From: Frankia casuarinae
GTDB taxonomy: Bacteria; Actinomycetota; Actinomycetes; Frankiales; Frankiaceae
Length of the DNA stretch: 64,000 nt
NCBI RefSeq assembly: GCF_000013345.1
Contig: NC_007777.1
Span: forward strand, 3,410,001 to 3,474,000
Reading direction: 5' to 3'
In this document: piece by piece, positions 13,995-53,795 of the stretch
How positions within the stretch are numbered: the first letter of the stretch is position 1
Layout of the letters: each line of letters opens with the position of its first letter
Program-made: the position numbers and the translations under genes
Notes under the pieces: generated by a model
The model's input: only the letters and a program-made list of their open reading frames with translations
The model's database searches: none
Told to the model about the DNA's origin: nothing

Positions 13995-16194
13995 TCAGCA
14001 GCCGGGGGGTCAGCCAGTCGACGACCGCTCGGACGAACGACCTGCGGTGGCGCAGATCCGCGATCTCGTGCCCCTCGCCGGGAAAGAGCAGGTAACGGCA
14101 GTCGACGCCGCGAGCGAGGGCCGCGGCGACCGTCTGCTCCGCCTCGATCACCGGGACGTTGGTGTCGTTCTCCCCATGCACGACGAGCAACGGCGCGGCG
14201 AGGGCGCTCATCCGGTGCAGCGGGGACAGCGCCCGCAGCAACGCCGGCTCGGTGCGTGGATCACCGTACTTGGTGACCGCGGACGCGGCGATCCACGGCT
14301 CGGTGTACTGATAGAAGCTCTCCAGATCAACCATCCCGCAGACGTCTACCCCGACCCGGAACAGCTCCGGGAAGTGGACCATCGCCGCCAGCGTCAGATA
14401 GCCGCCGTAGGAGCGGCCGGCGACGCCGATCCGGTCCGGGTCAGCCAGGCCCGTCGCGACCAGATGCGCCACGCAGCTGCGGACGTCGGCGATGCCGCCG
14501 AACCGACGATGGGTGTGATCGGCCTCCTCGAACGACCGGCCGAATCCGGTGGAGCCGCGCACGTTCGGCGCGAACACCGCGATCCCCCGGGCGAGCACGG
14601 CCTGGAACAGCGGGTTGTAGACGGGACGCTCCTGCGCCTCCGGGCCGCCGTGCAGGTGGAGCAGGGTCGGGACCGGTCCTCGCGGGCCGTGCGGGCGGTA
14701 CCACCAACCGGACAGTTCCCGGCCGTCGTGGGCCGGCAGGGCGCACGGCACCGGACGGACCAGCCGCGGGTGGTCACCGGTGCGGGGCCCGGGGATCCCG
14801 GGTACACGCGCCGGCGCGGATAGCCCGGATGGCATGGATGGCCCGGATGGCCCGGATGGCCCCGGGCTGTCGGATCCCAGGCCGTCAACGTCGATGTTCA
14901 GGACGACCCGCGGTCCCGGGATGGTCACTGCCTCGACGGGAGCGTGCGAGATCAGCCGACGGTAGCCGGCGGATGGCGCGGTGAGATCCCAGGTCCAGAT
15001 CTCCCCCGGCCTGGTGGCACCATCCAGGGCAAGCACGAGCTCCCGCCCCCCGGGCCGGACGAGCACGCCGGTGACGACGTCGCGGGGAAGCGGCGGCAGC
15101 GTCAGTGACCGTCCGGTGGGCAGATCGACCAGCGCGAGCTCGCTGCGCCCGCCCACGTTCCAGACGACGACCGCCCGATCCGGATCGAGCAGGGCGAACC
15201 GCTCCAGATCGGCGTCATCCCGGGCGGCGAGGACCCGCGGCCCGCCGGTCGGATCGCCCGTGGGGTCGACGGGGACGTCGAACAACGCGGCCCGGTCCCG
15301 CCCGATGTCGCACAGCAGCAGCAGGCGACGGCCGTCGGCGACGAACCGACCGGTCACGGTGGTCGCCGTCCCGCCGGGCACCTGCCATGACCCGCCGATC
15401 CCCTCCCTGGCTGCGATCCCCTCCCTGGCTGCGATCCCCTCCCTGGCTGCGATCCCCTCCCTGGCTGCGATCCCCTCCCTGGCTGCGATCCCCTCCCTGG
15501 CTGCGATCATGGTGTCGACCACGAGCACCCGCCGGACGCCACGGGGGCCCTCCCGCAGCAGCAGGCGGTACCCGCCACCGGCCGGGCCCCGCCCCGGACC
15601 GCCGCTCCCCGTCCCGTCCGGCGCGGGGTCGGGGAGAACGACGACGTCGCACACCTGCAGCGCCACTCCGGCGGCGAGGCGGGTCCGTCGCCCGTCGGAG
15701 TCGATCAGCACCGCGGCGGTGCGGCCGGACGGATCGGAGCGGTCGGACTCGGTCACGACGAGGCCGTGGCCGTCGTCGGTCCAGCGGGCTGGGGTGGCGG
15801 CCCGCCTCCCGCCGCCGGCCAGGTGGCGCAGGTCACCGCCGTCCGCCCGGACGGTCCGGACCTCGGTGAGCTCCCCGCCGCCCGGCGCGACGTGGACGGC
15901 GATCCGGTCGTCGGTCGGCGACCACAGGACCGCCCGGACATGACCGGGGCCGGTGTCAACCGGGCGCTCCCGGCCATCCGGGTCCCGGATCCACAGCGCG
16001 GGGGCGCCGCCGCGATCGCCGACGAAGGCGAGCCGACCATGCGGGCCGGTACTCGGTGCGCGACAGCTCGCCGCCGCGACCCAGGCGTCGGACAGATCGC
16101 CGGGACGCCCGGAGTCGACGGTGTGCGCCACCACCGGCCGTCCCACCACCGGCCGTCCCACCACCGGCTGCGCCACCACCGCGGGTCGGATCAT
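13987..16194 (-). CDS. S9-family (prolyl oligopeptidase-type) peptidase
   Basis: About 735 residues: an N-terminal beta-propeller (many D-G-x-x strands such as ALWIRDPDGRERPVD and LWSPTDDRIAVH) and a C-terminal alpha/beta hydrolase domain. The triad is Ser in GVAGRSYGGYLTLA (about 593), Asp in VVHGENDTNVP (about 676) and His in FPGEGHEIADL (about 708). These enzymes cut short peptides, often acyl-peptides, in the cytoplasm. I prefer the ATG at 16194, which has ggag at good spacing, over 16212. The propeller holds an IAAREG hexapeptide repeated six times (15397-15504), and the N-terminus repeats VVGRP. It follows the amidotransferase gene on the same strand, so it may hydrolyse the product of that pathway, in the position of the M42 peptidase of the known osmolyte trio. 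Confidence 0.88.
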   Translation of the reverse strand: MIRPAVVAQPVVGRPVVGRPVVAHTVDSGRPGDLSDAWVAAASCRAPSTGPHGRLAFVGDRGGAPALWIRDPDGRERPVDTGPGHVRAVLWSPTDDRIAVHVAPGGGELTEVRTVRADGGDLRHLAGGGRRAATPARWTDDGHGLVVTESDRSDPSGRTAAVLIDSDGRRTRLAAGVALQVCDVVVLPDPAPDGTGSGGPGRGPAGGGYRLLLREGPRGVRRVLVVDTMIAAREGIAAREGIAAREGIAAREGIAAREGIAAREGIGGSWQVPGGTATTVTGRFVADGRRLLLLCDIGRDRAALFDVPVDPTGDPTGGPRVLAARDDADLERFALLDPDRAVVVWNVGGRSELALVDLPTGRSLTLPPLPRDVVTGVLVRPGGRELVLALDGATRPGEIWTWDLTAPSAGYRRLISHAPVEAVTIPGPRVVLNIDVDGLGSDSPGPSGPSGPSMPSGLSAPARVPGIPGPRTGDHPRLVRPVPCALPAHDGRELSGWWYRPHGPRGPVPTLLHLHGGPEAQERPVYNPLFQAVLARGIAVFAPNVRGSTGFGRSFEEADHTHRRFGGIADVRSCVAHLVATGLADPDRIGVAGRSYGGYLTLAAMVHFPELFRVGVDVCGMVDLESFYQYTEPWIAASAVTKYGDPRTEPALLRALSPLHRMSALAAPLLVVHGENDTNVPVIEAEQTVAAALARGVDCRYLLFPGEGHEIADLRHRRSFVRAVVDWLTPRLLTP
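15397..15504. repeat. 18-bp tandem repeat, six perfect units
   Basis: gatcccctccctggctgc repeated six times without change. It is in frame within the S9 peptidase gene and codes for a six-residue unit (AAREGI in rotation) inserted in a loop of the beta-propeller. The perfect identity shows recent expansion. Confidence 0.97.
16129..16173. repeat. 15-bp tandem repeat, two full units plus a degenerate third
   Basis: caccaccggccgtcc at 16129-16143 and 16144-16158, followed by a diverged third unit. It codes VVGRP-type repeats in the N-terminus of the S9 peptidase. Confidence 0.85.
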
Positions 16195-37727: not shown

Positions 37728-38476
37728 CAGCCGCGGGCGTCCGGATCAATGGCGATCAGCCGTTCGCCGTACTCGACCGATGTCGCGTCGGGCTGGCACA
37801 CCTCGACGATCCGGCCGGCTGTGTCCGCCTCGATGGGGATCATCAGCTTCATCACCTCGAGGATCGCGACCTGCTGCCCGGCCTTCACGGTGTCCCCGAC
37901 CCGGACGAACGGCCGCGCACCGGGTTCGGGAGCGTAGTAGAAGACCCCGACGCTCGGCGCGGTGACGTAGCTCAGGCCAGCGTCACCACCGGCGGTCGAC
38001 GAGTCCGCCGGCCGCTCCTCGACCGGCGCGGCCTCGCCGGGAACGGCACCACCGGAAACGGCACCACCGGAAACAGCGCCACCGGAAACAGCGCCACCGG
38101 AAACAGCGCCACCGGAAACAGCGCCACCAGGAACGGAGCGAGGCGCGGGAACCGGATGACGACGCGGCGGCGCCGTCGCCTGGACGGGCTCGCGCCGGTC
38201 GTCACCGAGCTCGGCCAGGTCGGTCCAGGCCAGCTCCACGACGATGTCGCCGGCGGTCACCCGCAGGTGCGACGGCGGCCGCACCGCGTTCGCGTACAGG
38301 GCAAGGGCATGGTGCTGCACCGCGGCCAGGACGGTGTCGACGTCCGCCGCGTCGATGGCGGACAGCGGGCCGGACGCGGCGGTCGACCATCCCGGCGCCG
38401 TGCCCGGATCGTCGACCGCCCGGTTTCCGTTGGAGGAGACGGCGCCGGAGCGGCGCGCTGCCACAGTCGTGCTCAT
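37727..38476 (-). CDS. accB: Biotin carboxyl carrier protein of acetyl-CoA carboxylase
   Basis: 249 residues, longer than usual BCCP. The C-terminal biotinyl domain has the modification site [15 protein letters not shown] and the thumb-type [20 protein letters not shown] typical of AccB. The N-terminal part ([18 protein letters not shown]) is the usual pre-domain. The linker is Pro/Ala/Gly-rich and contains five units of a 15-bp repeat (GGAVS). gggagcagagttc precedes the ATG at 38476, which overlaps the upstream stop by 4 bp (atga). It carries carboxybiotin from AccC to the AccD-AccA fusion. Confidence 0.93.
38054..38128. repeat. 15-bp tandem repeat, five units, in accB linker
   Basis: ggaaacagcgccacc (first unit with gcacc variants) five times, in frame, coding GGAVS units in the flexible linker of the biotin carrier. 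A near unit precedes it. Confidence 0.93.
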
Positions 38477-40329
38477 GAACTCTGCTCCCTGTGTTCGGAG
38501 TGTCCCGGGTGTTCGGAGTTGCCCGGGCGTCCCGGGGGTGACGCGCCGGCCGGCTCACCCGCCACCGCGCCGAAGCGACGGAAGCGCAGCCACCGCCGGT
38601 ACACGAGCTCCTCCGGGCCGGCCAGTCCCAGCGTCGCCAGCGTCGCGCGCAGTGCGGCACCGACGAGCGCCGCGGCGTGGACGGGATCGGCCGCGGCACC
38701 GCCGTCAGGCTCGGGTACGACCCCGTCGACAATCCCGAGCTCCAGCAGCTGACGCGCGTCCACGCGCAGCGCCTCGGCAGCCTTCGGCGCGGCGGTCGCG
38801 TCCTTCCAGAGGATCGACGCGCATCCCTCCGGGCTGATCACCGAGTACACCGCGTTCGCGCACATCAGCACCCGGTCGGCGACCGCGAGCGCCAGCGCCC
38901 CGCCGCTGCCGCCCTCGCCGGTGACGACGGCGACAACCGGAACGGGCAGCGCCCCCATCAGGCGCAGGTTCTCGGCAATCGCGACCGACTGTCCCCGTTC
39001 CTCCGCCTCGACGCCGGGATGGGCGCCGGCGGTGTCGATGAAGGTGACCACCGGCAGGCCGAGCTTGGCCGCCAGCCGCATGACCCGCGCCGCCTTGCGG
39101 TACCCGGCGGGACTGGGCATGCCGAAGTTCCGCTCGCTGAGCTCCGCGACCGTGTGCCCCTTCTGGGTACCGATCACGGCCAGCCCGACTCCGCCCAACC
39201 GGCCGAGACCGGCGACCATCGCCGGGCAGTCGGCGGAGGCCCGGTCGCCGTGCAGCTCGTTGAAGTCGTCCAGCAGAAGCGAGATCAGGTCGAGGGTGGT
39301 CGGGCGCCCGAGCGCCCTGGCCTGCCGCACGGCGTCCCAGGGATGACGGACGGGCAGGTGGAGCACCTCGGTGATCACCCGCTCGGCTCCGTCATGCCCG
39401 TCGGACAGGCCGCCCCCGGCTGTGGCGCCCTCGGCCGTGGCGCCCTCGGCCACCTCATGAACGCCGGTGGCGACGCGCAGGAGCCGGGACAGCGCGGCCC
39501 GCAGGTCGCCACGGGGAACAATCATGTCCACGATTCCGTGGTTCAGCAGGAACTCCGCCGTCTGGAAGCCGGGCGGCAGCTTCTGGCGGATCGTCTGCTC
39601 GATCACCCGGGGACCGGCGAACCCGAGGCGGGCACCCGGCTCGGCGACGATGACATCACACAGAGTAGCGAATGAGGCTGCCACTCCCCCGAACGTCGGG
39701 TCGCTGATCAGTGCCACGGTGAGCACGCCCGCCTCGTCGAGCCGGCCGAGCATCTGGCTCGTCTTGGCCATCTGCATCAGCGACAGCAGGCCTTCCTGCA
39801 TGCGGGCACCGCCGGAGGCGGTCACAATCACCAGCGGTGTGCGCTCGGCCAACGCCAACTCGCCCGCCCGGGTGATGGCCTCGCCGACGGCCGATCCCAG
39901 GCTGCCGCCCAGGAAACGGAAGTCCATCGCCGCGACGATCACCTCGGCGCCGTCGATGCGTCCCCGCGCGCAGACGACCGCCTCGGCCAGTCCGGTCCGC
40001 TCGCGGGCCTGGCGCACCCGGTCCGGATAGGGGGCCGAATCGGTGAAGCGCAGCGGATCGGGATCCGCGGGCACGGGCGTCGCCAGCTCGGACCATCCCG
40101 GGTCCAGCAGCTGGGCGAGCCGACTCGGGGCCGTCAGCGGCGCGTGCCAGCCGCACTCCGGGCAGACCCGGTTGGCTGCGAGGAACCGCTTGCCATAGAG
40201 AAGGGTCCGGCATCCCCCGCACAGATGCCAGGCGAGGCGGTCCGCGGTCGACTCCGCCTCGACGGCTGGCACGGGCACGGGCGCCGGCGCGGTCGTGCCC
40301 GCGGTGGCTCCGGTCGTGGGCGCGGTCAC
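38473..40329 (-). CDS. accDA: Acetyl-CoA carboxylase carboxyltransferase, AccD-AccA fusion
   Basis: 618 residues. The N-terminus has the four-Cys zinc ribbon of AccD ([27 protein letters not shown]). The beta carboxyltransferase follows ([40 protein letters not shown]). From about residue 320 comes the alpha part ([73 protein letters not shown]). Both halves of the active site are thus on one chain. It moves the carboxyl group from biotin to acetyl-CoA. The GTG at 40329 overlaps the pfaD stop by 4 bp (gtga). Its place in this cluster points to a malonyl-CoA supply for the synthase. Confidence 0.95.
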
Positions 40330-41987
40330 CGGGCACCCGCCGTCAGGACGTACCGGTGCGCCGGCGAGCTCTCGCGCGTGGCCGGCGGTCGGTAGGCGGC
40401 CGCCCGCGCCGGCAGCCGCACCCCGGCGAACCGCAGCGCCGCGGCCCGCCCGGTGTAGGCGGCGCCGAGCATCAGCTCACCCGCGACGTCCACCGCGCTG
40501 CGCCGGTCGACGTCCGCCAGGTAGCTGCCGGCCGCCCAGGTGTTGAAGGCGCCCAGGGACGGGCCGCACCAGATCTGGTAGTCGGTGATCCGGTCGGGCG
40601 CGGCGGAGATCGCCCAGCCCGAGGACAGCCCGAGATACCAGCGGAACACCAGCGCCATCCGTCTCTTCGGGTTGGCCTGCGCGCGTTCGATCTGCTCCGG
40701 GTCGCGCCGGCTGAAGTAGTCGACGGTGTCGGCCCATACCTCGTCCACGGACCGGCGCAGGACCGAACGCTCCAGCCAGTTCCGATCCTCCGCCGAAAGG
40801 TCGTCGAGGGAGTCGTGGGCGCGGTAGAGGTCGTACAGCCGGCGGCCCCGCCCGGCGAACATCGTGCCGCGGCGCAGGACCTGCACCTCGGCGCCGATCT
40901 CGAACATGTCGGAGGCCGGCGCCATGTCGATGTCGTTCGGGCCCGCCTTCGCCAGCAGCGCCCGCGCCGCCGCCGACTGACCGGACTCGACGCACGCCTG
41001 GTTCACCGAACCGGTGACGACGTAGGCTGCGCCGAGCGCGAACGCGGCGAACACCGCCGATGGCGTACCGATGCCACCCGCGGCTCCCACTCTCGGCGGG
41101 CGGCGGTAGCCGAGCTCGGCGGCGATCCGGTCGCGCACCGCGATGATCTCGGGGAGCAGGACCGGGAGCGGCCGGCGGTCGGTGTGGCCGCCGGAGTCCG
41201 CCTCGACGGTGATGTCGTCGGCCATCGGCACCGTGCGGGCGAGCGCGGCCTGCTCGGCGGTCAGGGTGCCATCCGCCACCAGCGGGCGCAGCAGCGCGTC
41301 CGGGGCGGGGCGCAGGAAGAGCTCGGCCACCTCCCCGCGGGAGACCTTGGCCACCACCCGGTGCCCGACGTGTACGCCGCCAGCGCCGCCCGGCCGCAGC
41401 CCCGCGGCCCGGTAGGCGACGATCTGCGGGGTCAGCTCCAGGAACGCGGACGCCTCCACGCAGGTCACCCCGTGGCGCAGGCAGGCGGCCAGGATGGCCC
41501 GTTCCAGCTCCAGCTCGTTCGGGCTGTGGATCAGATTGCAGGCGAAGGGCGCCGGGCCGAGCTCACGGCGGATCCGCCCAAGCGCGTCGTCGATCCGGTC
41601 GGGCAGCACGCCGGCCGCCCCGTACGTGGCGAGGAAGCCCGCCCGTGCCATCGCCACGACCAGCTCCGGCGAAGCGATGCCGTTCGCCATCGCGCCGGTC
41701 ATGTAGGGCTGACGCACCCCGTAGTCGGTCAGGAAGGACGCGGCTCCCAGCCGCTCGGGGCGGGCCGGCGGCGCCACAGCCAGCACCGTCGCCCCCGCCG
41801 CGCGCAGGCTCGCCGGGTCGTCGGTGGCCGCGATCGCGCCGCCCTGTTCGCTCACCACGACGCAGGGCGCGTCCAGCCGGGCGAGCAGGTCGTGGATCTC
41901 CTGGGCGGATCGCGCGAGCCGCGGCCCGCCCGATCCAGGGCGCGGCGTCGCCGGCGCGCCACGGACCGTCGTTGTCGTCGTCACCAT
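40326..41987 (-). CDS. pfaD: PfaD-family enoyl reductase of a PUFA/polyketide-type synthase
   Basis: 553 residues, a flavin-dependent TIM-barrel of the nitronate monooxygenase/PfaD family. [100 protein letters not shown] and [15 protein letters not shown] are the family's motifs. The C-terminal helical part ([36 protein letters not shown]) is specific to PfaD. It reduces the trans-2-enoyl-ACP intermediate, acting in trans on the synthase. gaggagcgcaatc precedes the ATG at 41987. It overlaps the dehydratase gene by 7 bp. Confidence 0.94.
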
Positions 41988-44984: not shown

Positions 44985-47900
44985 TCATGCCCGGTCACCC
45001 GACTGCCACCGCTGCGCCCCCTGACGGATCAGATCCGCCATGTCCGGGGTGCCGACGAAGGTGAAGTCGGACAGGCGCTGCAGCACCCGTCCATCCGGGG
45101 TGTGGGCGGTCACGGTCACCGTGACCGTCATCGGGCCGGGTCGGACGTCGTCGACGACCACGATGAACGTCTCGTTGGCCGGCAGCGGAGCGAAGAACTC
45201 CGCGTGCCCGATCTCGATCGGCAGGGCGCCCACCTCGTTCAGGGTCCACCGGGCGAGCACGCTCCCGGCCGCGGCGAGGATGTCGCACAGGACCGGGCGG
45301 TGCAGCGCGCCCGCGAACGCGCCGCCGGCGAAGGGCAGTTCCGGCAGGCGGCACTCAGCCACCAGACGGCCCGGCTCCCGCACGAGCAGGCGCCGGATGC
45401 CCCGCATCAACGGCCCGTGGATGAGCAGCCCGTCGGTGTAGACCCAGGCCGCGTCCTCGCCCTGCTCGCCGAGCCGGTAACCATCGGCGGGCCAGCCCGG
45501 GGCGGTCGGGGCGGCCCCGGCGGCCTTGCCGACCTCGGTGACCTCGGCGAGCACGAGGGTGCCCGCGTAGTGCGAGGTCGGCAACGCGCCGCCGCTGTCC
45601 CCGCGAACGGTCGCGGACACCGTCACCGGCCCGCCGTCACGCCCGTCACCGGGCCCACCGCCGGTCCCGTCGACGGGCCGCGCGTCGAGCCAGTAGTCCC
45701 GCAGGTGCGCCCCGTCGAACACGATCCCCTTGTGCACGATGAAGTTCCGGACCTCGACGACCTGACGCCCGGGCAAGGCTCGTTCGACCCCGTTGACCAA
45801 CCAGCCGAGACCGGCGGTGGCGGGCAGCACCGGGGCCGGCCCGATCTGGTGCTGGTCGATGACCGTCTCGGTGTCCATAGCCGCTATCGAACGGTGCGCC
45901 ACGAACGCGGCGGGCGCCGTGCCACCCGCGGCCCGCGCGAGCGGAGCGGATCCACCGATGAGGACCGCGCCATCCGCGCCGTGGCCGTCGACGAGTTCCG
46001 CGACGAAGCGGCGCGCGCCCTCGTCCGGCGGCAGCAGCGTCACGCCCCGGGAGCGGAAGAGCTCCCGCAGGTCGGCCGTGACCATCCCGCCGTCCCAGGC
46101 GCCCCAGTTCAGGGCGACCACCCGGCCGGTGAGCCCGGTCCGGGCCCAGGCCGCGACCCTGGTCAGCGCCTCGTTGGCCGTGGCGTAGTCGGCCTGCCCC
46201 GGGTTACCGAAGACACCGGCGACCGAACCGAACAGCACGAGATGACGCAGCGGTGCCCCCTCCAGCGCCGTGAGCACGGAGCGCAGGCCGGCGAGCTTCG
46301 GGGTGAGCACCGACCGGATGGCCGGGACGGTCTTGTCCGTGAGCATCGCGTCGGCGAGAGCGCCGGCGCCGTGCACGACGCCGGTGACCCGGTCACGCCA
46401 GGGCGCGAGCGCCGCGGCCGTCGCCACCGGATCCGAGGCGTCCACGGCCTGGTAGTGGATCCGCGCGCCGGTCGCGGCAAGGTCACCGAGGGTGGCCCGC
46501 ACCTGCCGGACGGCGATCACGGCGGCAGCCGCGGCATCGACGTCGGGCAGCCGCACCTTGCGTCCCTCGGCACGGGCCCCGGCGAGATACGCCGCCTTGA
46601 GGCCGTCATCCTCGACTCCGGCCGCCCAGCCCGGCTCCTCAACCAGATTCGTGCGTCCGAGCAGGACGAACTCGCAGGAGGCGCGGCGCGCCAGCTCCTC
46701 GACGCAGCGCGCGGTCACTCCGCGGGCTCCGCCGGTCACCACCAGGACGTCATCCGGGCCCACCGGGGGCCGGAGCGTCGCCGGGGAGGTCGTCCCGGTC
46801 ACCCCGGCCGCCTCAGCCACCCCGGCCGCCTCAGCCACCCCGGTCACCCCGGTCACCCCGGTCACCCCGCCCTGGACATACTCGACGGACCAGCGGCGTC
46901 CCTCGGGATCCAGACCGACCTCGACGACGTCCCGGGCGGAATCGACGGCCTCCGCCAGGACGGCCGCCGCGAAGGTGTCGTCGTCGAGCGCCGGATGGAC
47001 GTCGACCGACCGGCAGACCAGCTCAGGTGCCTCGAGCGCGACGGTCTTCACCAGCCCGGTGATCCCCGCGGTGACCGCCCCGGCTATCGAGGACCCGCCC
47101 CGATGGCCGAGCAGCCCGTCGACCCGCGTCACCGTTAGGAAGGCCGCGCGCCGGCCCGCCGAGGCCGCCGCCCGCAGTGGTACGACGAGCCCCTTCGTGG
47201 CCAGGATGGCGTCGGCGAGCCCACGCGCGGCGACGTCGAAGTCGGCCAGCCCGGTGGCGCCGATCCCGGCTCGATCGTCCTCCCCGGCGCGGTCCGGCTC
47301 AGCCCCGGATCCGGCGCCCGGTGATGCCGGAGCGCCGAGGGCGAGCAGGCAGAGGTCCAGGCGGACCGATCCGGCGACAGCCGCGAGCGCCGCCTCGACC
47401 GCGGCGCCATCCCAGCCGAGGAGGCCGGCGGTGTCGGAACCCGCAAGGGACCCGATCGCGATCCGCTCGACCGAGATGCCGCGCTCCCTGAGGTGGCGGA
47501 CCAGCGCCACACCACCGGCGTCACCGACCTCGATCACGAGCGCGCTGGGCTGGACGCCGAAAGGATCGTCGAGCGGGTCTACGGCCGGCAGAAGGCGCGG
47601 CACCGCGCGCAGCCGCTCGATGGGCGCCTCGGTCGGAACGGGGTGCGGCGCCGATGCAGTCGCCGTGGGCATCGACGCCGCCGTCTCAGTAGCGGTGGGC
47701 GGGGTCGACTCGGGTGCGGCGCTGGCCGGCGCGGTCAGGCCCAGGCCATCACGCAGGAACGAGGCCACATCCGCCAGCGTCCGCATCTCCGCCGCCCGCT
47801 CCGGACCCACCGCAGGAACACCCGGGAACCGCTCCTGCAACGACCCCAGAATCTGCACCCGCTTAATCGAATCAACCCCCAGATCCGACTCCAACGCCAT

Positions 47901-50900
47901 CGACGGCTCCAGCACATCCACCGGATAACCCGTCTTCTCCGCCACCACCTCCGCCACCGCCGACTCAATAACCGACACGTCGACCGCAGCCACACCCGCA
48001 CCCGCACCCTGAACCACCGAACCCAGGCCATCACGCAGGAACGAGGCCACATCCGCCAGCGTCCGCATCTCCGCCGCCCGCTCCGGACCCACCGCAGGAA
48101 CACCCGGGAACCGCTCCTGCAACGACCCCAGAATCTGCACCCGCTTAATCGAATCAACCCCCAGATCCGACTCCAACGCCATCGACGGCTCCAGCACATC
48201 CACCGGATAACCCGTCTTCTCCGCCACCACCTCCGCCACCGCCGACTCAATAACCGACACGTCGACCGCAGCCACACCCGCACCCACAGCCACACCCGCA
48301 CCCGCACCCGCACCCGCACCCGCACCCGCACCCGCCGAACCCTGAACCACCGAACCCAGGCCATCACGCAGGAACGAGGCCACATCCGCCAGCGTCCGCA
48401 TCTCCGCCGCCCGCTCCGGACCCACCGCAGGAACACCCGGGAACCGCTCCTGCAACGACCCCAGAATCTGCACCCGCTTAATCGAATCAACCCCCAGATC
48501 CGACTCCAACGCCATCGACGGCTCCAGCACATCCACCGGATAACCCGTCTTCTCCGCCACCACCTCCGCCACCGCCGACTCAATAACCGACACGTCGACC
48601 GCAGCCACACCCACACCCGCACCCACACCCGCACCCGCACCCGCACCCGCACCCGCACCCGCCGAACCCTGAACCACCGAACCCAGGCCATCACGCAGGA
48701 ACGAGGCCACATCCGCCAGCGTCCGCATCTCCGCCGCCCGCTCCGGACCCACCGCAGGAACACCCGGGAACCGCTCCTGCAACGACCCCAGAATCTGCAC
48801 CCGCTTAATCGAATCAACCCCCAGATCCGACTCCAACGCCATCGACGGCTCCAGCACATCCACCGGATAACCCGTCTTCTCCGCCACCACCTCCGCCACC
48901 GCCGACTCAATAACCGACACGTCGACGCCCGCCGGCGGCTCGGCCGTCGCCGGCTGGGCAATCCCAGCGGTGGCCGGCTGCGACCCCACGGTCGCCGGGG
49001 CCGCGGATGGGACGGTCACCGGAGGCACGGATGGGACGGATGGGACGGATGGGACGGTCACCGGAGGCACGGGCGGGGCAGCCGCGATCGCACCCGCCGG
49101 ACGCCCGTTACTGTTCCCGGTGCTGGGGATCGGAAGCGGGACGGCCGGCAGCCCGGGCGCCGGGATTCCCGGCGTACGCAGATCGCCCGCCGTTCCCCGT
49201 CCGTACAGGTCCGTCGGTTCCGTACCGGTGGTGAGCGCGCCGCCCGGCGCCCCGCCGGCCGCGAGCCCGCCGGCGCCGTGGCCGCCGACGCCGTTGCCGT
49301 ACTCCAGGTCGGTCAGGGACGCCAGGATCTCGTTGACCCGGATATGGGCCTCACCCACGGCCAGGCTCTGCCGGGTCACAGCGTCGGCAGCGGCCCGGAT
49401 CTCCTGACCCGCCCCATTGTCCGCGGGGGCCGCGCGAAGGACCTGCACGAGGCCCTCGGCGACCCGGAGCTGGGTGTCGAGGAACTGGGAGTGCAGGGCC
49501 AGATGGTCGCGGGCGACCTCGCTGATGCCGGCGACCTCACCGGCGCTCGGGGCCGGGGCCGCCAGGGTGGCTGCCGCCGGAGCAGGCGCTACCGGAGCAG
49601 GCGCTACCGGAGCGATGGCCGTCGGGACGGGTACCGCCCGGGTGGGCGCCGGTGCCGGCTGGGTGGGTACTGGCCGGGTGGGCGCCGGTGCCGGCTGGGT
49701 GGGTACTGGCCGGGTGGGCGCCGGTGCCGCTTCGGGGACGCGCCGCTCGGTGGCGGTCGGGACGTTTTCGAGCGCCGCGGCGGCCGACTCCCGCGGCCGG
49801 ACGGCCGCGGCGGCCGCGAGCGTGACCAGCGCGTCGGCGTAGGCGCGACGGCGAGGCTCCGAGACGTAGTCCGCCCCGGTCAGCGCAACCGTCATCCCGG
49901 TCGGCTGCACCTGCTGCGGCAGCGGGGCCGTATAGCGGTTGAGCCCGCTGAGCTCGACGCCGAGCACCGCGAGGCGCACGGCCGCGGTCATCAGAGCCAC
50001 CGCGCCGTCGCCGTCGCGACCGGCGTCGGTGGGGATCGCCACGACATCGTCGCCGAGGGTGCGCCGGACCAGACCGGTCAGCACCTGGCTCGGCCCGATC
50101 TCGACAACCACCGTCGCGCCGTCCGCGTGCAGGGCCTGCAGCCCGGCGACGAACTCGACGGGGTTGCCCAGCTGCCGGGTGAGGACCCGGCGGTTCTCGG
50201 CGGGGTCGTCGCCGTACCGGGCGCCGGCGGTGTTGGCGTGCACCGGCACGGCCGGCGATCCGATTTCGGTGACGTCCACCGCGGCGGCGAAGTCGTCCAC
50301 CGCGTGCCCGACGAGCGAGGTGTGGAACGCCGCGGCCACGGAGATGCGCCGGGCGTCGAGCCCGTTCGCGGTGGCGGCGGTGACGAACTCCTCGACGGCG
50401 GGCGTCGGACCACCAACGACGACCTGGTCGGGGGCGTTGTGGTTACACACGACCACGTCCGGGTGCGCGGTCAGCAGCTCGGCGACCGCGTCGCGGTCGG
50501 CGCGGACGGCGGCCATGGTGCCGGGGTCGAAGCCGGGTTCGTCCGGCGGGGCCATGGCCTGGCCGCGACGCCGGGCGAGCCGGAAGAAGTCGGCGTCGGC
50601 GAGGGAACCGGCGGCCCACAGGGCGGTCAGCTCCCCGAAGCTGTGGCCGAGCAGGCTCACCGGGCGCAGTCCCAGCTCCCGCAGGAACCGGAACTGGCCG
50701 ACGGAGAGCGCACCGATCGCGGGCTGCGCGTACTCGGTGCGCGTCAGGTTCATCTCGTGGTCGGCACGGTCGCCCGGATCGAAGCTCGGCGGCGGGAACA
50801 CCGCACGGGCGAGCGTGAGCTCGGCCCCGGCGAAGGTGGCGTTCGCCGCGTCGAAGGCCTCCCGCACCGGCGGGATCTCGACGGCGGCGGTGAGCCCCAT

Positions 50901-52667
50901 GTCGACGTACTGGCTGCCCTGGCCGGCGAAGACGACGCCGACGCGGGGCTGCTCGGCCGCCTGCCGGCGGTAGTGCACCCCGGCGGGATGCGACCATTCG
51001 GCGGCGTCGGCTCGCGCCGCGAGCTGCTCGATCGCGATCGCGCGCAGGCGCTCCGCCTCGGCGCCGGTGCGCGCGACGAACCCGACCCGCGCGGCGCTGC
51101 CCGGGATGCCCGTGTCACCGTTCGGTTCGGCCTGTCCGCGCACCAGGTCGAGGAGCTCCGCGGGCGTCGCGGCATGCCACAGGTGGGCGCGGACGGCACG
51201 GTGCGTCGCCCGGGCGGCACGCTTATCGGCGTCCGGGCGTGCCGTGTCGGGGGTCTCCTCCAGGACGACGTGGAAGTTGGTACCGCCGAACCCCATGGCG
51301 GAGGCGGCCGCCCGGCGCCGCCCCACGTCCGGGTCGAGCACCCAGGGCCGGGTGCGGGTGCTGAGGTAGAAGGGCGAGCCCTCCTGGGCGAGCGCCGGAT
51401 TCGGTTCGCGGACGTTGATCGTGGGCGGCAGCACCCGGTTGTACAGCGACAGCGACAGCTTGATCAGGCTGGCCGCGCCGGCAGCGCCCTTGGTGTGCCC
51501 GATCTGCGACTTCACACTGCCGATCGCCGCCCGGCCCGGGCGTGCCCCGGCCTCGGCCAGGACGGCCCCGAGCGCGGACAGCTCGGTGGCGTCACCGACG
51601 GCGGTACCGGTGGCGTGCGCCTCGAACAGCTCGACGGACGCCGGGCTCACCCCGGCGTCCGCGTAGGCCCGGCGCAGCGCGCGGACCTGGCCCTCCGCGC
51701 GCGGCGCGTAGACGCTCTTGAACCGACCGTCGCTGGACGACCCGAGACCCCGGATGACCGCGTAGATCCGGTCCCCGTCGCGCTCGGCGTCGGCCAGCCG
51801 CTTGAGCGCCAGCATCCCGATGCCCTCGCCGACCAGGGTGCCGTCGGCGCCGGCGGCGAACGGCTGGATGCGGTCGGACTTGGACAGCGCCTGCGTCTTC
51901 GAGAAGCACATGTAACTGAAGATCGAGTTCTCGGTGTCACAACCACCGGTGATCATGAGATCGGCACGGTGGTCGATGAGTTCGGCGATGGCCCCGCGGA
52001 CGGCCGTGAGCCCACTCGCGCACGCGGAGTCGACCGTGTAGTTCGTGCCTCCGAGGTCGAGCCGGTTGGTGATCCGGCCGGAGACGACGTTGCCGAGCAG
52101 CCCGGGGAACGAGTTCTCCTCCCACGGCGGGAACGCGAGCGAGAAGGCCTCCGAGACCGCGGCGGTTTCGGCCTCGTCGAGTCCCGCGGCGCGCACGACC
52201 TCGCGCAGGACCGGCGTCTCCAGCCGGGCCGCCAGCGGGTGGGCCATCGTGGTGGGGCCGGCCATGCCCAGGATGACCCCGGTGCGCTCGGAGTCGTACC
52301 ACGCCGATCCCGGTGCGCCCGCGTCGACGAGCACATCCCGCGCGACGATCAGACTGAGCAGCTGCACGACCGCGGTCACGTCCAGCAGGTTGGGCGGAAA
52401 GCCGAACTCCACCGGGCTGAACGCGACCTCGGGGAGGAAGCCGCCCCGGCGCGCGTAGGTACGGTCGGGCACCGTCGCATCCGGGTCGTAGTAGTCCTCC
52501 GGGCGCCAGTGCGTCGACGGCACCTCGGTGACGCAGTCGACGGCGTCGATGACGTTGCTCCAGTACTCCCGCACGTCGCGCGCCATCGGGAACAGTCCGG
52601 CGAGCCCGACGATCGCGATCGGGTTGTTCGCGAGTCGTCGGTCGTCAGGGCGGTCGGACTCGTCCAC
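44985..52667 (-). CDS. pfaA: PfaA-like multidomain synthase: KS-AT-ACP4-KR-DH
   Basis: 2560 residues. KS (about 15-470): active Cys near 215 in VDSACASGLTAV, His in FEAHATGTAVGDAT and SVKSQIGHTKGAAG. AT (about 570-870): FAGQGSQYVDMG and the Ser in LLGHSFGELTALWAAG. A Pro/Ala linker with a 36-bp repeat, then four carrier domains (about 1247-1642), each with LGVDSIKRVQILGSLQ, the Ser that takes phosphopantetheine. KR (about 1970-2200): VVTGGARGVTARCVEEL, HGAGALADAMLTDK and QADYATANEAL. The C-terminal hotdog (about 2265-2530) has HQIGPAPVLPATAGLGWLV, the PS-DH pattern. This is the PUFA-synthase (PfaA) or heterocyst-glycolipid-synthase (HglE) architecture; which product is made is unknown. The GTG at 52667 has ggggag. 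First gene of the six-gene cluster. Confidence 0.94.
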   Translation of the reverse strand: MDESDRPDDRRLANNPIAIVGLAGLFPMARDVREYWSNVIDAVDCVTEVPSTHWRPEDYYDPDATVPDRTYARRGGFLPEVAFSPVEFGFPPNLLDVTAVVQLLSLIVARDVLVDAGAPGSAWYDSERTGVILGMAGPTTMAHPLAARLETPVLREVVRAAGLDEAETAAVSEAFSLAFPPWEENSFPGLLGNVVSGRITNRLDLGGTNYTVDSACASGLTAVRGAIAELIDHRADLMITGGCDTENSIFSYMCFSKTQALSKSDRIQPFAAGADGTLVGEGIGMLALKRLADAERDGDRIYAVIRGLGSSSDGRFKSVYAPRAEGQVRALRRAYADAGVSPASVELFEAHATGTAVGDATELSALGAVLAEAGARPGRAAIGSVKSQIGHTKGAAGAASLIKLSLSLYNRVLPPTINVREPNPALAQEGSPFYLSTRTRPWVLDPDVGRRRAAASAMGFGGTNFHVVLEETPDTARPDADKRAARATHRAVRAHLWHAATPAELLDLVRGQAEPNGDTGIPGSAARVGFVARTGAEAERLRAIAIEQLAARADAAEWSHPAGVHYRRQAAEQPRVGVVFAGQGSQYVDMGLTAAVEIPPVREAFDAANATFAGAELTLARAVFPPPSFDPGDRADHEMNLTRTEYAQPAIGALSVGQFRFLRELGLRPVSLLGHSFGELTALWAAGSLADADFFRLARRRGQAMAPPDEPGFDPGTMAAVRADRDAVAELLTAHPDVVVCNHNAPDQVVVGGPTPAVEEFVTAATANGLDARRISVAAAFHTSLVGHAVDDFAAAVDVTEIGSPAVPVHANTAGARYGDDPAENRRVLTRQLGNPVEFVAGLQALHADGATVVVEIGPSQVLTGLVRRTLGDDVVAIPTDAGRDGDGAVALMTAAVRLAVLGVELSGLNRYTAPLPQQVQPTGMTVALTGADYVSEPRRRAYADALVTLAAAAAVRPRESAAAALENVPTATERRVPEAAPAPTRPVPTQPAPAPTRPVPTQPAPAPTRAVPVPTAIAPVAPAPVAPAPAAATLAAPAPSAGEVAGISEVARDHLALHSQFLDTQLRVAEGLVQVLRAAPADNGAGQEIRAAADAVTRQSLAVGEAHIRVNEILASLTDLEYGNGVGGHGAGGLAAGGAPGGALTTGTEPTDLYGRGTAGDLRTPGIPAPGLPAVPLPIPSTGNSNGRPAGAIAAAPPVPPVTVPSVPSVPSVPPVTVPSAAPATVGSQPATAGIAQPATAEPPAGVDVSVIESAVAEVVAEKTGYPVDVLEPSMALESDLGVDSIKRVQILGSLQERFPGVPAVGPERAAEMRTLADVASFLRDGLGSVVQGSAGAGAGAGAGAGVGAGVGVAAVDVSVIESAVAEVVAEKTGYPVDVLEPSMALESDLGVDSIKRVQILGSLQERFPGVPAVGPERAAEMRTLADVASFLRDGLGSVVQGSAGAGAGAGAGAGAGVAVGAGVAAVDVSVIESAVAEVVAEKTGYPVDVLEPSMALESDLGVDSIKRVQILGSLQERFPGVPAVGPERAAEMRTLADVASFLRDGLGSVVQGAGAGVAAVDVSVIESAVAEVVAEKTGYPVDVLEPSMALESDLGVDSIKRVQILGSLQERFPGVPAVGPERAAEMRTLADVASFLRDGLGLTAPASAAPESTPPTATETAASMPTATASAPHPVPTEAPIERLRAVPRLLPAVDPLDDPFGVQPSALVIEVGDAGGVALVRHLRERGISVERIAIGSLAGSDTAGLLGWDGAAVEAALAAVAGSVRLDLCLLALGAPASPGAGSGAEPDRAGEDDRAGIGATGLADFDVAARGLADAILATKGLVVPLRAAASAGRRAAFLTVTRVDGLLGHRGGSSIAGAVTAGITGLVKTVALEAPELVCRSVDVHPALDDDTFAAAVLAEAVDSARDVVEVGLDPEGRRWSVEYVQGGVTGVTGVTGVAEAAGVAEAAGVTGTTSPATLRPPVGPDDVLVVTGGARGVTARCVEELARRASCEFVLLGRTNLVEEPGWAAGVEDDGLKAAYLAGARAEGRKVRLPDVDAAAAAVIAVRQVRATLGDLAATGARIHYQAVDASDPVATAAALAPWRDRVTGVVHGAGALADAMLTDKTVPAIRSVLTPKLAGLRSVLTALEGAPLRHLVLFGSVAGVFGNPGQADYATANEALTRVAAWARTGLTGRVVALNWGAWDGGMVTADLRELFRSRGVTLLPPDEGARRFVAELVDGHGADGAVLIGGSAPLARAAGGTAPAAFVAHRSIAAMDTETVIDQHQIGPAPVLPATAGLGWLVNGVERALPGRQVVEVRNFIVHKGIVFDGAHLRDYWLDARPVDGTGGGPGDGRDGGPVTVSATVRGDSGGALPTSHYAGTLVLAEVTEVGKAAGAAPTAPGWPADGYRLGEQGEDAAWVYTDGLLIHGPLMRGIRRLLVREPGRLVAECRLPELPFAGGAFAGALHRPVLCDILAAAGSVLARWTLNEVGALPIEIGHAEFFAPLPANETFIVVVDDVRPGPMTVTVTVTAHTPDGRVLQRLSDFTFVGTPDMADLIRQGAQRWQSGDRA
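47741..48927. repeat. Four identical 245-bp ACP repeats with hexamer-repeat linkers
   Basis: The same 245-bp block stands at 47741-47985, 48023-48267, 48356-48600 and 48683-48927 without a visible base change, apart from the last base of the fourth. Each encodes one carrier domain of the synthase. Linkers between them are cacccg/cgcacc hexamer runs, coding Gly-Ala and Gly-Val tracts, and differ in length (periods 282, 333 and 327 bp, all multiples of three). Confidence 0.97.
49638..49727. repeat. 36-bp tandem repeat, two and a half units
   Basis: A 36-bp unit (49638-49673, 49674-49709, half unit to 49727) codes PTQPAPAPTRPV repeats in the Pro-rich linker between the acyltransferase and carrier region of the synthase. 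Confidence 0.92.
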
Positions 52668-52721
52668 GTGCTTCTCCCCTTTACTGGCCGGCAGGTCACC
52701 ACCGCGTGCGGCGGGACCCTG

Positions 52722-52757
52722 ATATGTCGGGCGTGGTGCCCTAATATGTCGGGCGTG
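52722..52757. promoter_or_regulatory. 14-bp direct repeats 22 bp apart upstream of pfaA
   Basis: atatgtcgggcgtg occurs at 52722-52735 and 52744-52757. The 22-bp period puts both on the same face of the helix. They lie 55-90 bp before the pfaA start, where an activator would bind next to the promoter. No matching regulator is in the window. Confidence 0.5.
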
Positions 52758-52850
52758 ATGTATCCGGCGGAGGTATTCAGGTGTGAGGTATTGGGAACCG
52801 GTTCACCGGAGCGGACCGGCCGGTCCGCCGGAGAGCCAGACGGCCGGCGG

Positions 52851-52898
52851 GTTGTTCCGGAACAACGTTGTCCCGGAACAACGTTGTTCCGAAGCACT
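52851..52898. promoter_or_regulatory. Three tandem 16-bp palindromes, probable operator array
   Basis: GTTGTTCCGGAACAAC (52851-52866, perfect palindrome) is followed at once by GTTGTCCCGGAACAAC (52867-52882, one change) and GTTGTTCCGAAGCACT (52883-52898, right half decayed). The junctions also create GGAACAACGTTGTTCC. The array lies about 185 bp upstream of the pfaA start, in a 471-bp stretch (52668-53138) without any credible gene, between pfaA and the SGNH hydrolase 3' end. It looks like cooperative binding sites for a dimeric repressor. Confidence 0.65.
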
Positions 52899-53001
52899 GC
52901 CGCAGGTCTTCGTGGCCGTGACAGCGAACCGCGAGGCCTGGCGACAGTTTACTCGTATCCGATCCGCGCGGGCATCCTGGAACCAGTGTCATCGACGTCC
53001 T

Positions 53002-53020
53002 GTTGTTCCGCAAGAACAAC
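53002..53020. promoter_or_regulatory. Fourth, spaced copy of the GTTGTTC/GAACAAC palindrome
   Basis: GTTGTTC and GAACAAC arms separated by 5 bases (ccgca), about 100 bp beyond the three-unit array. The arms equal those of the array, so the same protein may bind here with weaker affinity. Confidence 0.5.
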
Positions 53021-53138
53021 CTGCCGAACACTCGATCGGCCGAGGCAATCGCCGCGACGGTGCGTCGTGAGATGCTTCACTCCCGATCCACTCGACGTCG
53101 GGTCAGAATACGTCGAGAGGCCGGTCAACCGAACAGGG

Positions 53139-53795
53139 TCAGGATGGAACCGGAACCGGAATCCGGGGAGCCGGGCGCGACAGGACTTCGCGCACCAGAT
53201 CCGCAAGGAGACTGGCGACGAATTCGTATCCGGCCGCGTTGGGATGATAGTCCCCGGGGTTCCACAGTTGAGAGTCGTGGGCGCGGTCGACGTGATCGAA
53301 ATCGACGAGGAGAATTCCGTGGTTCGCCGCGGTCGAGCGGACATGGTCGTTCGCCCGCTCGATCCTGGAGCGGAGTACGTCCAGGATCGCCGGCGGCGCC
53401 GAGAGCCTGGTGGTGAGGTCCGGAAAGGTGAAGGTGAACGCGGTGGTTCCCGGGACCGCGAGAGTCGCGACTAGGTGGGTGAAGTTTTTTTCGAACCTGT
53501 CCTGCGAGTAGTCCGCGAGCAGGTCGTTGCTGCCCGCGGCGATCCCGACGAGGGCCGCCGGGGCGGAGGCGGCGACGTCGAGCTGCGTGTCGATGACATC
53601 CTGCGTCGTCGCGCCGTTCCGCCCCAGGTTGAGAACGCGACTGCGCGGAATACCCAGAGCCGCGGCCATTCTGGGCGCCCAGCCGATCCAGGCGCCGTCG
53701 GGAGCCGGGTCACCGCGGCCCTCGGCGAAGCTGTCGCCGACCACGGTGAGCATCGGCGACGGCGTCGGACCGCCGATGATCGGTCGACTGTCCAT
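53139..53795 (-). CDS. SGNH/GDSL-type hydrolase
   Basis: 218 residues. LTVVGDSFAEGRGDP holds block I Ser (about 22), LNLGRNGATT the Gly of block II, IAAGSNDLLADY the Asn of block III, and PGDYHPNAAGYEF the Asp/His of block V, so all SGNH blocks are present. There is no signal peptide. Such enzymes are esterases, lipases or acyl-thioesterases. The ATG at 53795 overlaps the stop of the FAD reductase gene by one base (taatg), so the two are coupled. Next to the lipid synthase cluster it could release or transfer acyl chains; that role is an inference. Confidence 0.88.
   Translation of the reverse strand: MDSRPIIGGPTPSPMLTVVGDSFAEGRGDPAPDGAWIGWAPRMAAALGIPRSRVLNLGRNGATTQDVIDTQLDVAASAPAALVGIAAGSNDLLADYSQDRFEKNFTHLVATLAVPGTTAFTFTFPDLTTRLSAPPAILDVLRSRIERANDHVRSTAANHGILLVDFDHVDRAHDSQLWNPGDYHPNAAGYEFVASLLADLVREVLSRPAPRIPVPVPS

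What the first reader, a model, noticed from the sequence alone, without database searches (positions are those of the whole stretch)
47741..48927. Four carrier domains identical at DNA level, with foreign-looking codons
All four 245-bp ACP units are identical, so they were copied or homogenised very recently. Their codons differ from the flanks: Ile is ATT, and GAT, GTT, TAT, GGT are common, while the rest of the synthase prefers ATC, GAC and GTC. This points to an ACP cassette gained from elsewhere or shaped by its own selection, then amplified. In PUFA synthases the number of tandem ACPs is known to scale productivity, so copy changes here could tune output.
Basis: partly seen in the sequence, partly recalled or inferred. 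Interest (0 to 1): 0.72.

Follow-up and report, generated by a model that had tools for sequence, protein, structure and literature searches.

The report
Mirror-image codons in repeated carrier domains
A lipid-making enzyme gene carries four carrier domains that are identical at the DNA level, and across related bacteria such repeated stretches have pushed their silent codon letters to one of two mirror-image extremes, which looks like a mark of how repeated DNA is copied and recombined and not like foreign DNA.

Summary
The PfaA-type synthase gene at window 44985-52667 (-) holds four ACP units identical over 245 bp. Their third codon positions are almost free of C (7%, against 50% in the flanks) and rich in G/T.

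The foreign-cassette reading fails. KS and ACP domains have the same nearest relatives. The pattern also occurs in native arrays across Actinobacteria, including some single-copy ACPs.

The comparison showed an unexpected regularity. Homogenised ACP arrays of Actinobacteria are polarised into two opposite states: G/T-ending ("K") or C/A-ending ("M"). Of 55 actinobacterial arrays, 36 are K and 10 M at |z|>=3; of 45 arrays from other phyla, none. Strength rises with inter-copy identity (rho 0.79). The polarity sits in the repeated DNA and stops sharply downstream.

K arrays with confident orientation are all on the leading strand. M arrays are lagging in two lineages but leading in two others, so replication strand is a tendency, not a rule.

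Best reading: concerted evolution by inter-copy recombination, with a strand-specific compositional imprint of unproven mechanism. NucS, structure-avoidance, translational and GC-bias explanations fit poorly.

The parts
44985..52667 (-). PfaA-type iterative FAS/PKS gene, GTG start, 2560 aa
   Evidence: TIGR02813 omega_3_PfaA 1733 bits, cut-off 1010
51411..52625 (-). ketosynthase domain (aa 15-419)
   Evidence: PF00109 and PF02801
50049..50933 (-). acyltransferase domain (aa 579-873)
   Evidence: PF00698
48682..48926 (-). ACP copy 1, 245-bp identical block
   Evidence: exact repeat; PF00550
48600..48681 (-). Ala/Gly linker 1, with a 6-bp repeat tract, also G/T-ending
48355..48599 (-). ACP copy 2, 245-bp identical block
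48267..48354 (-). Ala/Gly linker 2
48022..48266 (-). ACP copy 3, 245-bp identical block
47985..48021 (-). short linker 3
47740..47984 (-). ACP copy 4, 245-bp identical block
46092..46742 (-). ketoreductase domain (aa 1976-2192)
   Evidence: PF08659
41981..44998 (-). next gene of the cluster, 1005 aa with a C-terminal FabA-like dehydratase region
   Evidence: NF003509 and TIGR01749 below their cut-offs
40326..41987 (-). PfaD-family enoyl reductase gene
   Evidence: TIGR02814 618.6 bits, cut-off 449
38473..40329 (-). fused AccD-AccA carboxyltransferase gene
   Evidence: TIGR00515 (aa 32-288) and TIGR00513 (aa 329-589) over cut-off

Best explanation
This is a native tandem ACP array of a known kind of PfaA-type lipid synthase. 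Its copies are kept identical by recombination with one another (concerted evolution). In Actinobacteria this homogenised DNA is imprinted with a strand-specific composition: one strand becomes rich in G/T and its complement in C/A wherever the protein leaves a free choice, which is mainly the third codon position. The array settles into one of two mirror states, K (coding strand G/T) or M (coding strand C/A). K goes with leading-strand genes and M often, but not always, with lagging-strand genes, as expected if the imprint comes from single-stranded DNA at replication forks or from recombination that starts there. Shown: identity, polarity, two states, confinement mainly to repeated DNA, correlation with homogeneity, absence in 45 non-actinobacterial arrays. 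Inferred: that recombination or its single-stranded intermediates cause the polarity. Not shown: the enzyme responsible.
For: Of 55 actinobacterial arrays with at least 2 copies, 46 have |z|>=3 (36 K, 10 M), and all 30 with identity of at least .92 do; 0 of 45 non-actinobacterial arrays do. Spearman |z| against identity .79 (n=51) and .79 (n=55). G/T excess in K loci: ACP +.32, linkers +.26, next 10 upstream codons +.28, 31-70 codons upstream +.08, downstream -.06 to +.02; in M loci: ACP -.32, linkers -.13, downstream 10 codons -.18, beyond about 0. Gradient: the first copy is more G/T-rich than the last in 27 of 33 untied K arrays (9 ties) and 7 of 8 untied M arrays (2 ties), so the copy nearest the 5' end of the G/T-rich strand tends to be the most polarised. 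Orientation, confident cases: 21 of 23 complete-genome leading-strand arrays are K at z>=3, the other two z 0 and 1.7; draft G008 leading and K; Parafrankia-type G016, G017, G018, G019 lagging and M; G147 lagging and M. KS and ACP share one history.
Against: Two M arrays (G873; G664 with a single ACP) lie on the leading strand by octamer polarity, so replication strand does not determine the state. Lineages are few and related species are not independent. Single-copy ACPs can be strongly polarised (L038 z 7.9, L085 z 7.6), which needs a past array. Residual inter-copy differences are mostly C/G, C/T and A/G, so new variants against the polarity keep arising and the force that removes them was not seen directly. 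No other homogenised long coding repeat was on hand to show generality.
Confidence: 0.55

Rival explanations
1. A foreign ACP cassette was acquired and then amplified.
For: Codon usage differs sharply from the flanks.
Against: KS and ACP give the same nearest relatives and congruent distances; the same pattern recurs in many lineages with different ACP proteins, and its mirror image in others.
Confidence: 0.04
2. Damage on the lagging-strand template: repeated DNA spends longer single-stranded, cytosine (and adenine) on that strand is damaged and replaced by T or, through error-prone bypass, by G. A mutation-only version of the best explanation.
For: The strand losing C and A in leading-strand genes is the lagging-strand template; M arrays in two lagging lineages mirror it. 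NNY codons go to T and fourfold codons to G.
Against: Two M arrays on the leading strand. Needs a very high array-specific mutation rate, yet K-K species pairs keep third-position identities of .65-.92 in the ACP.
Confidence: 0.2
3. Selection against secondary structure in mRNA or single-stranded DNA of a GC-rich repeat; either C-poor or G-poor third positions help.
For: Explains two opposite states; every polarised array tested has at least one strand with weaker folding than synonymous recodings with flank codon usage.
Against: In K arrays, the majority state, the coding strand (the mRNA; in leading-strand genes also the lagging template) is only slightly less folded (Z 0.1-3.4) while the other strand gains most (Z 3-9); C/A-ending codons would serve the mRNA better (Z 1.4-4.7). 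Six high-GC non-actinobacterial arrays are unpolarised, though only two of them reach identity .88.
Confidence: 0.15
4. Translational selection (speed, co-translational folding, tRNA supply) particular to ACPs.
For: The polarity is bounded near domain borders.
Against: Opposite codon sets are used for nearly the same ACP protein in relatives (L230 M against L231 and L232 K; L039 M against L040 K); polarity scales with repeat identity; single ACPs of another PfaA-like family (L049, L050, L052) are unpolarised.
Confidence: 0.06
5. The mismatch endonuclease NucS/EndoMS, which by recall cuts G:T, G:G and T:T, purges K/M differences between copies in heteroduplex and tolerates G/T and A/C differences.
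For: Fits the actinobacterial restriction and the two classes (specificity recalled, not from a call).
Against: Its prediction failed: within-class (G/T, A/C) inter-copy differences 168 seen against 266 expected, cross-class 1083 against 985, and the same direction in the non-actinobacterial control (within-class 1211 against 1478).
Confidence: 0.05
6. Assembly artefact: copies wrongly made identical or wrongly counted.
For: Draft relatives often break near the array.
Against: Single-contig 5.43 Mb genome; near-identical arrays recur in many single-contig genomes; artefact cannot create codon polarity.
Confidence: 0.02

Closest known systems
PfaA of polyunsaturated fatty acid synthases (TIGR02813), 'Type M' FAS/PKS cluster of Shulse and Allen 2011 (PMC3098273)
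   Same: KS-AT-tandem ACP-KR order, PfaD and dehydratase neighbours; Frankia sp. CcI3 is listed under Type M (passages; that the window is CcI3 rests on my recall of its genome size)
   Different: Product unknown; ACP copies identical at DNA level and polarised, which the passages read do not mention
Tandem ACP arrays of Shewanella, Moritella, Colwellia and Geobacter PUFA-type synthases
   Same: Same domain and same array arrangement
   Different: Copies mostly less alike (34 of the 45 non-actinobacterial arrays below .86 identity) and codons unpolarised in all 45
Concerted evolution of tandem repeats by gene conversion
   Same: High identity within a genome, divergence between species
   Different: Accompanied by a strong two-state strand composition, which I know of in no described case
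Replication-strand compositional skew (leading strand G>C, T>A)
   Same: Same direction in K arrays; ordinary skew pooled over G001 20-kb segments is about .02
   Different: Far stronger in the window array (keto skew .45), confined to repeats, and violated by G873 and G664
RecA preference for GT-rich DNA (TGG repeats), PMC3763553
   Same: Filaments are most stable on TGG repeats and least on CCA, and disassemble from the 5' end (passages); arrays have one G/T-rich strand with its 5' copy tending to be the most extreme
   Different: Those are in vitro RecA measurements; no link to array evolution is shown

Membership tests
PfaA-type PUFA/secondary lipid synthase | TIGR02813 score over curated cut-off | tested here: met
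   1733 bits against 1010
PfaA-type PUFA/secondary lipid synthase | KS, AT, several tandem ACPs, KR in one protein | tested here: met
PfaA-type PUFA/secondary lipid synthase | PfaD enoyl reductase and FabA-like dehydratase encoded next door | tested here: met
   TIGR02814 over cut-off; FabA models matched below their cut-offs
PfaA-type PUFA/secondary lipid synthase | makes a polyunsaturated fatty acid | not testable with these tools
   Type M is treated under uncharacterised products in PMC3098273 (passages)
Tandem array under concerted evolution | copies more alike within a genome than between species | tested here: met
Horizontally acquired cassette | ACP relatives differ from those of the rest of the gene | tested here: not met
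Replication-strand skew | sign follows replication direction without exception | tested here: not met
   G873 and G664 are M on the leading strand; other confident cases agree
GC-biased gene conversion | raised GC at third positions in converted DNA | tested here: not met
   GC3 falls from about .90 to .78 in the window array

The most novel reading that the evidence does not exclude
A self-reinforcing recombination drive: G/T-rich single strands exposed at the fork are better recombinase substrates, so variants that raise the G/T content of that strand spread between copies with each conversion. The array thus evolves silent codons that promote its own homogenisation and copy-number change, and settles into one of two mirror states.
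Probability: 0.2. Interest if true: 0.85.

Novelty: new variant of a known kind. Interest (0 to 1): 0.6.

Why it matters
It would give a sequence-readable record of recombination between repeats in Actinobacteria, where classical MutS/MutL mismatch repair is mostly absent (recalled). It offers natural mirror-image replicates (K and M) for testing what drives strand composition. It also warns that codon usage inside homogenised repeats is not evidence of foreign origin, a common inference in genome annotation, and it bears on the stability of engineered repeats in GC-rich hosts.

Tried and rejected
NucS/EndoMS model: prediction on residual differences failed. Strict replication-strand rule: held for all genomes at first, then broken by octamer mapping of G873 and G664. 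By the same caution the leading-strand calls for L229 and L231, within a few percent of the midpoint, are treated as uncertain. Structure avoidance as the driver: disfavoured. GC-biased conversion: GC3 falls. Foreign cassette. Generality in other coding repeats: none suitable in 1.5 Mb (short-period repeats have high skew trivially; the few longer non-ACP arrays with 72-82% matches had skews near zero or up to .15). dif search: candidates in 6 of 13 genomes only. A GGGGGA count inside single loci was too sparse to orient them. G006:C249 (M) and G770:C3 (weak) could not be oriented with confidence. M-motif scan of 396 genomes of the genus of G671 found matches in 7, of which 5 look like ACP sites (G873, G664, G944, G861, G985), and none adds a complete genome with a new orientation. 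One search had a faulty motif and kept only 3 of 45 loci; one search repeated it and kept 39 of 45. Rows left out: single-copy loci, loci with fewer than two full copies, and duplicates of one genome (L147 = L084; L183-L212, some of which were held only as short stretches; seven of these, L184, L187, L188, L189, L192, L202, L210, and L212 are instead).
Full report
What is there. The gene at window 44985-52667 (-) encodes a 2560-residue PfaA-type synthase (TIGR02813, 1733 bits) with KS, AT, four ACPs and KR. Next to it lie a gene with a FabA-like region, pfaD and a fused accD-accA. The window is in a single-contig genome of 5,433,628 bases; I recall that this is the size of Frankia casuarinae CcI3. 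Shulse and Allen 2011 (PMC3098273, passages) list Frankia sp. CcI3 under their 'Type M' cluster, product unknown. The four ACP blocks are identical over 245 bp. Their third codon positions are .07 C.71 G and .22 T against .50.40 and .06 in the rest of the gene, and the linkers have no C.

Not foreign. In 39 loci with both domains readable (of 45 given), KS and ACP identities rise together (rho .87). The window's best relatives are L082 and L085 for both. Both belong to another genus of the same family. Relatives with one ACP show the same codons (L037, L038, L040, L085).

Two mirror states. I collected PfaA-type loci by family search in the genus (6 of 13 genomes over the cut-off), the order (18 of 35), the phylum (7 of 396) and the class (27 of 393); by an ACP-alignment scan of named genomes (80 best kept of 550 relatives) and of the genus of G671 (58 of 297 genomes); and by a plasmid search (7 records; 4 actinobacterial ones fetched). 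For each ACP unit I compared G/T-ending codons with the expectation from the same gene's flank usage per amino acid. Actinobacterial arrays are bimodal: K (G/T-ending) or M (C/A-ending). In one search, 46 of 55 actinobacterial arrays reach |z|>=3 (36 K, 10 M), including all 30 with mean inter-copy identity of at least .92; 0 of 45 arrays from other phyla do (largest 2.8). The 10 M arrays are five Parafrankia-type loci, G147 from another class, G873, and three Streptomyces plasmids. The genus name Parafrankia rests on L147 (Parafrankia soli), whose contig length equals that of G019:C202. Polarity rises with identity (rho .79). Among non-actinobacterial arrays the six with GC3 above .75 have z between -.5 and .3, two of them at identity .88-.90. 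GC alone is therefore unlikely to be the cause, but this control is small.

Where it stops. The polarity covers ACPs and, more weakly, linkers. In K loci it fades upstream over about 70 codons and is absent downstream; in M loci it is absent upstream and reaches 10 codons downstream. Within arrays the first copy is more G/T-rich than the last in 27 of 33 untied K arrays (9 tied), and in 7 of 8 untied M arrays (2 tied). Read along the G/T-rich strand, the 5'-most copy tends to be the most extreme in both states. Part of the edge asymmetry could reflect the phase of the repeat unit (linker plus ACP), and related species are not independent.

Replication strand. With the origin at dnaA (27 of 27 found) and the terminus at half-way, 25 leading-strand arrays had z from 0 to 9.3 (23 at z>=3) and two lagging-strand arrays were M. 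dif candidates confirmed G000, G001, G004, G147, G719 and G800. I then learned strand-polar octamers from G001; they occur 109:20 and 20:118 (forward:reverse) on its two arms. These place four Parafrankia-type contigs (G016, G017, G018, G019) as lagging, all M, and G008 as leading, K. They also show that G873 and the draft G664 (single ACP) are M on the leading strand. The G873 terminus lies at about 3.35 Mb, beyond the midpoint, so I count L229 and L231 (near the midpoint) as unknown. Confident cases: leading, 22 K, 2 weak, 2 M; lagging, 0 K, 5 M from two lineages. By lineage this is suggestive only.

Mechanism tests. Folding: K arrays mainly unfold the non-coding strand and M arrays the coding strand (30 loci, 60 recodings each), which does not fit selection on mRNA for the majority K state. 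Residual inter-copy differences are dominated by C/G, C/T and A/G, against the NucS prediction. Relatives can use opposite states: L230 against L232 share .90 of ACP residues, but only .32 of third positions agree, compared with .59 in the upstream stretch; the K-K pairs compared agree at .65-.92. A paper on RecA reports the most stable filaments on TGG repeats, the least stable on CCA, and loss from the 5' end (PMC3763553, passages). That would fit a recombination-driven process but is not evidence for it here.

Literature. Searches of the held open-access library listed no paper on polarised synonymous codons in tandem ACP arrays; I saw listings and abstract starts only, apart from passages of three papers. 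Subscription papers are mostly not held.

Verdict. The real surprise is a two-state strand polarity of repeated DNA in Actinobacteria. I rate the regularity itself as well supported, its link to recombination as likely, its link to replication direction as a tendency, and the enzyme responsible as unknown.

Noticed in passing
window 47493-53474 (+): An open frame of 1993 codons runs antisense to most of the pfaA gene; probably a by-product of high GC codon structure.
   Followed up: no
window 38473-40329 (-): AccD-like and AccA-like carboxyltransferase halves are fused in one 618-residue protein inside the lipid cluster.
   Followed up: no
L228 (G800:C1:5283000-5290000): The PfaA frame seems broken inside the ACP array (open frames of 1314 and 292 aa), while the ACPs remain K-type.
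   Followed up: no
L049, L050, L052: A second PfaA-like synthase in the genus with one unpolarised ACP of another type (LGIDSLKKVEIL), useful as a control that may never have been repeated.
   Followed up: partly
G007:C163, G008:C99, G010:C60, G011:C114, G014:C4, G022:C113, G025:C124, G026:C320, G034:C818: Draft contigs end near where the ACP array should start, as expected if those arrays are near-identical too, so ACP numbers in drafts may be underestimates.
   Followed up: partly
G001, G000, G016-G019, G873: Octamers around GGGGGA are strongly strand-polar and switch near the terminus, like FtsK-orienting sequences.
   Followed up: partly
L320 and L321 (Streptomyces plasmids): Within 5- and 4-copy arrays the last copies are the most polarised, a gradient along the array.
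   Followed up: partly
window 15396-15508 and 38037-38136: Short tandem repeats (18 bp x 6.3; 15 bp x 6.7) overlapping long reading frames.
   Followed up: no
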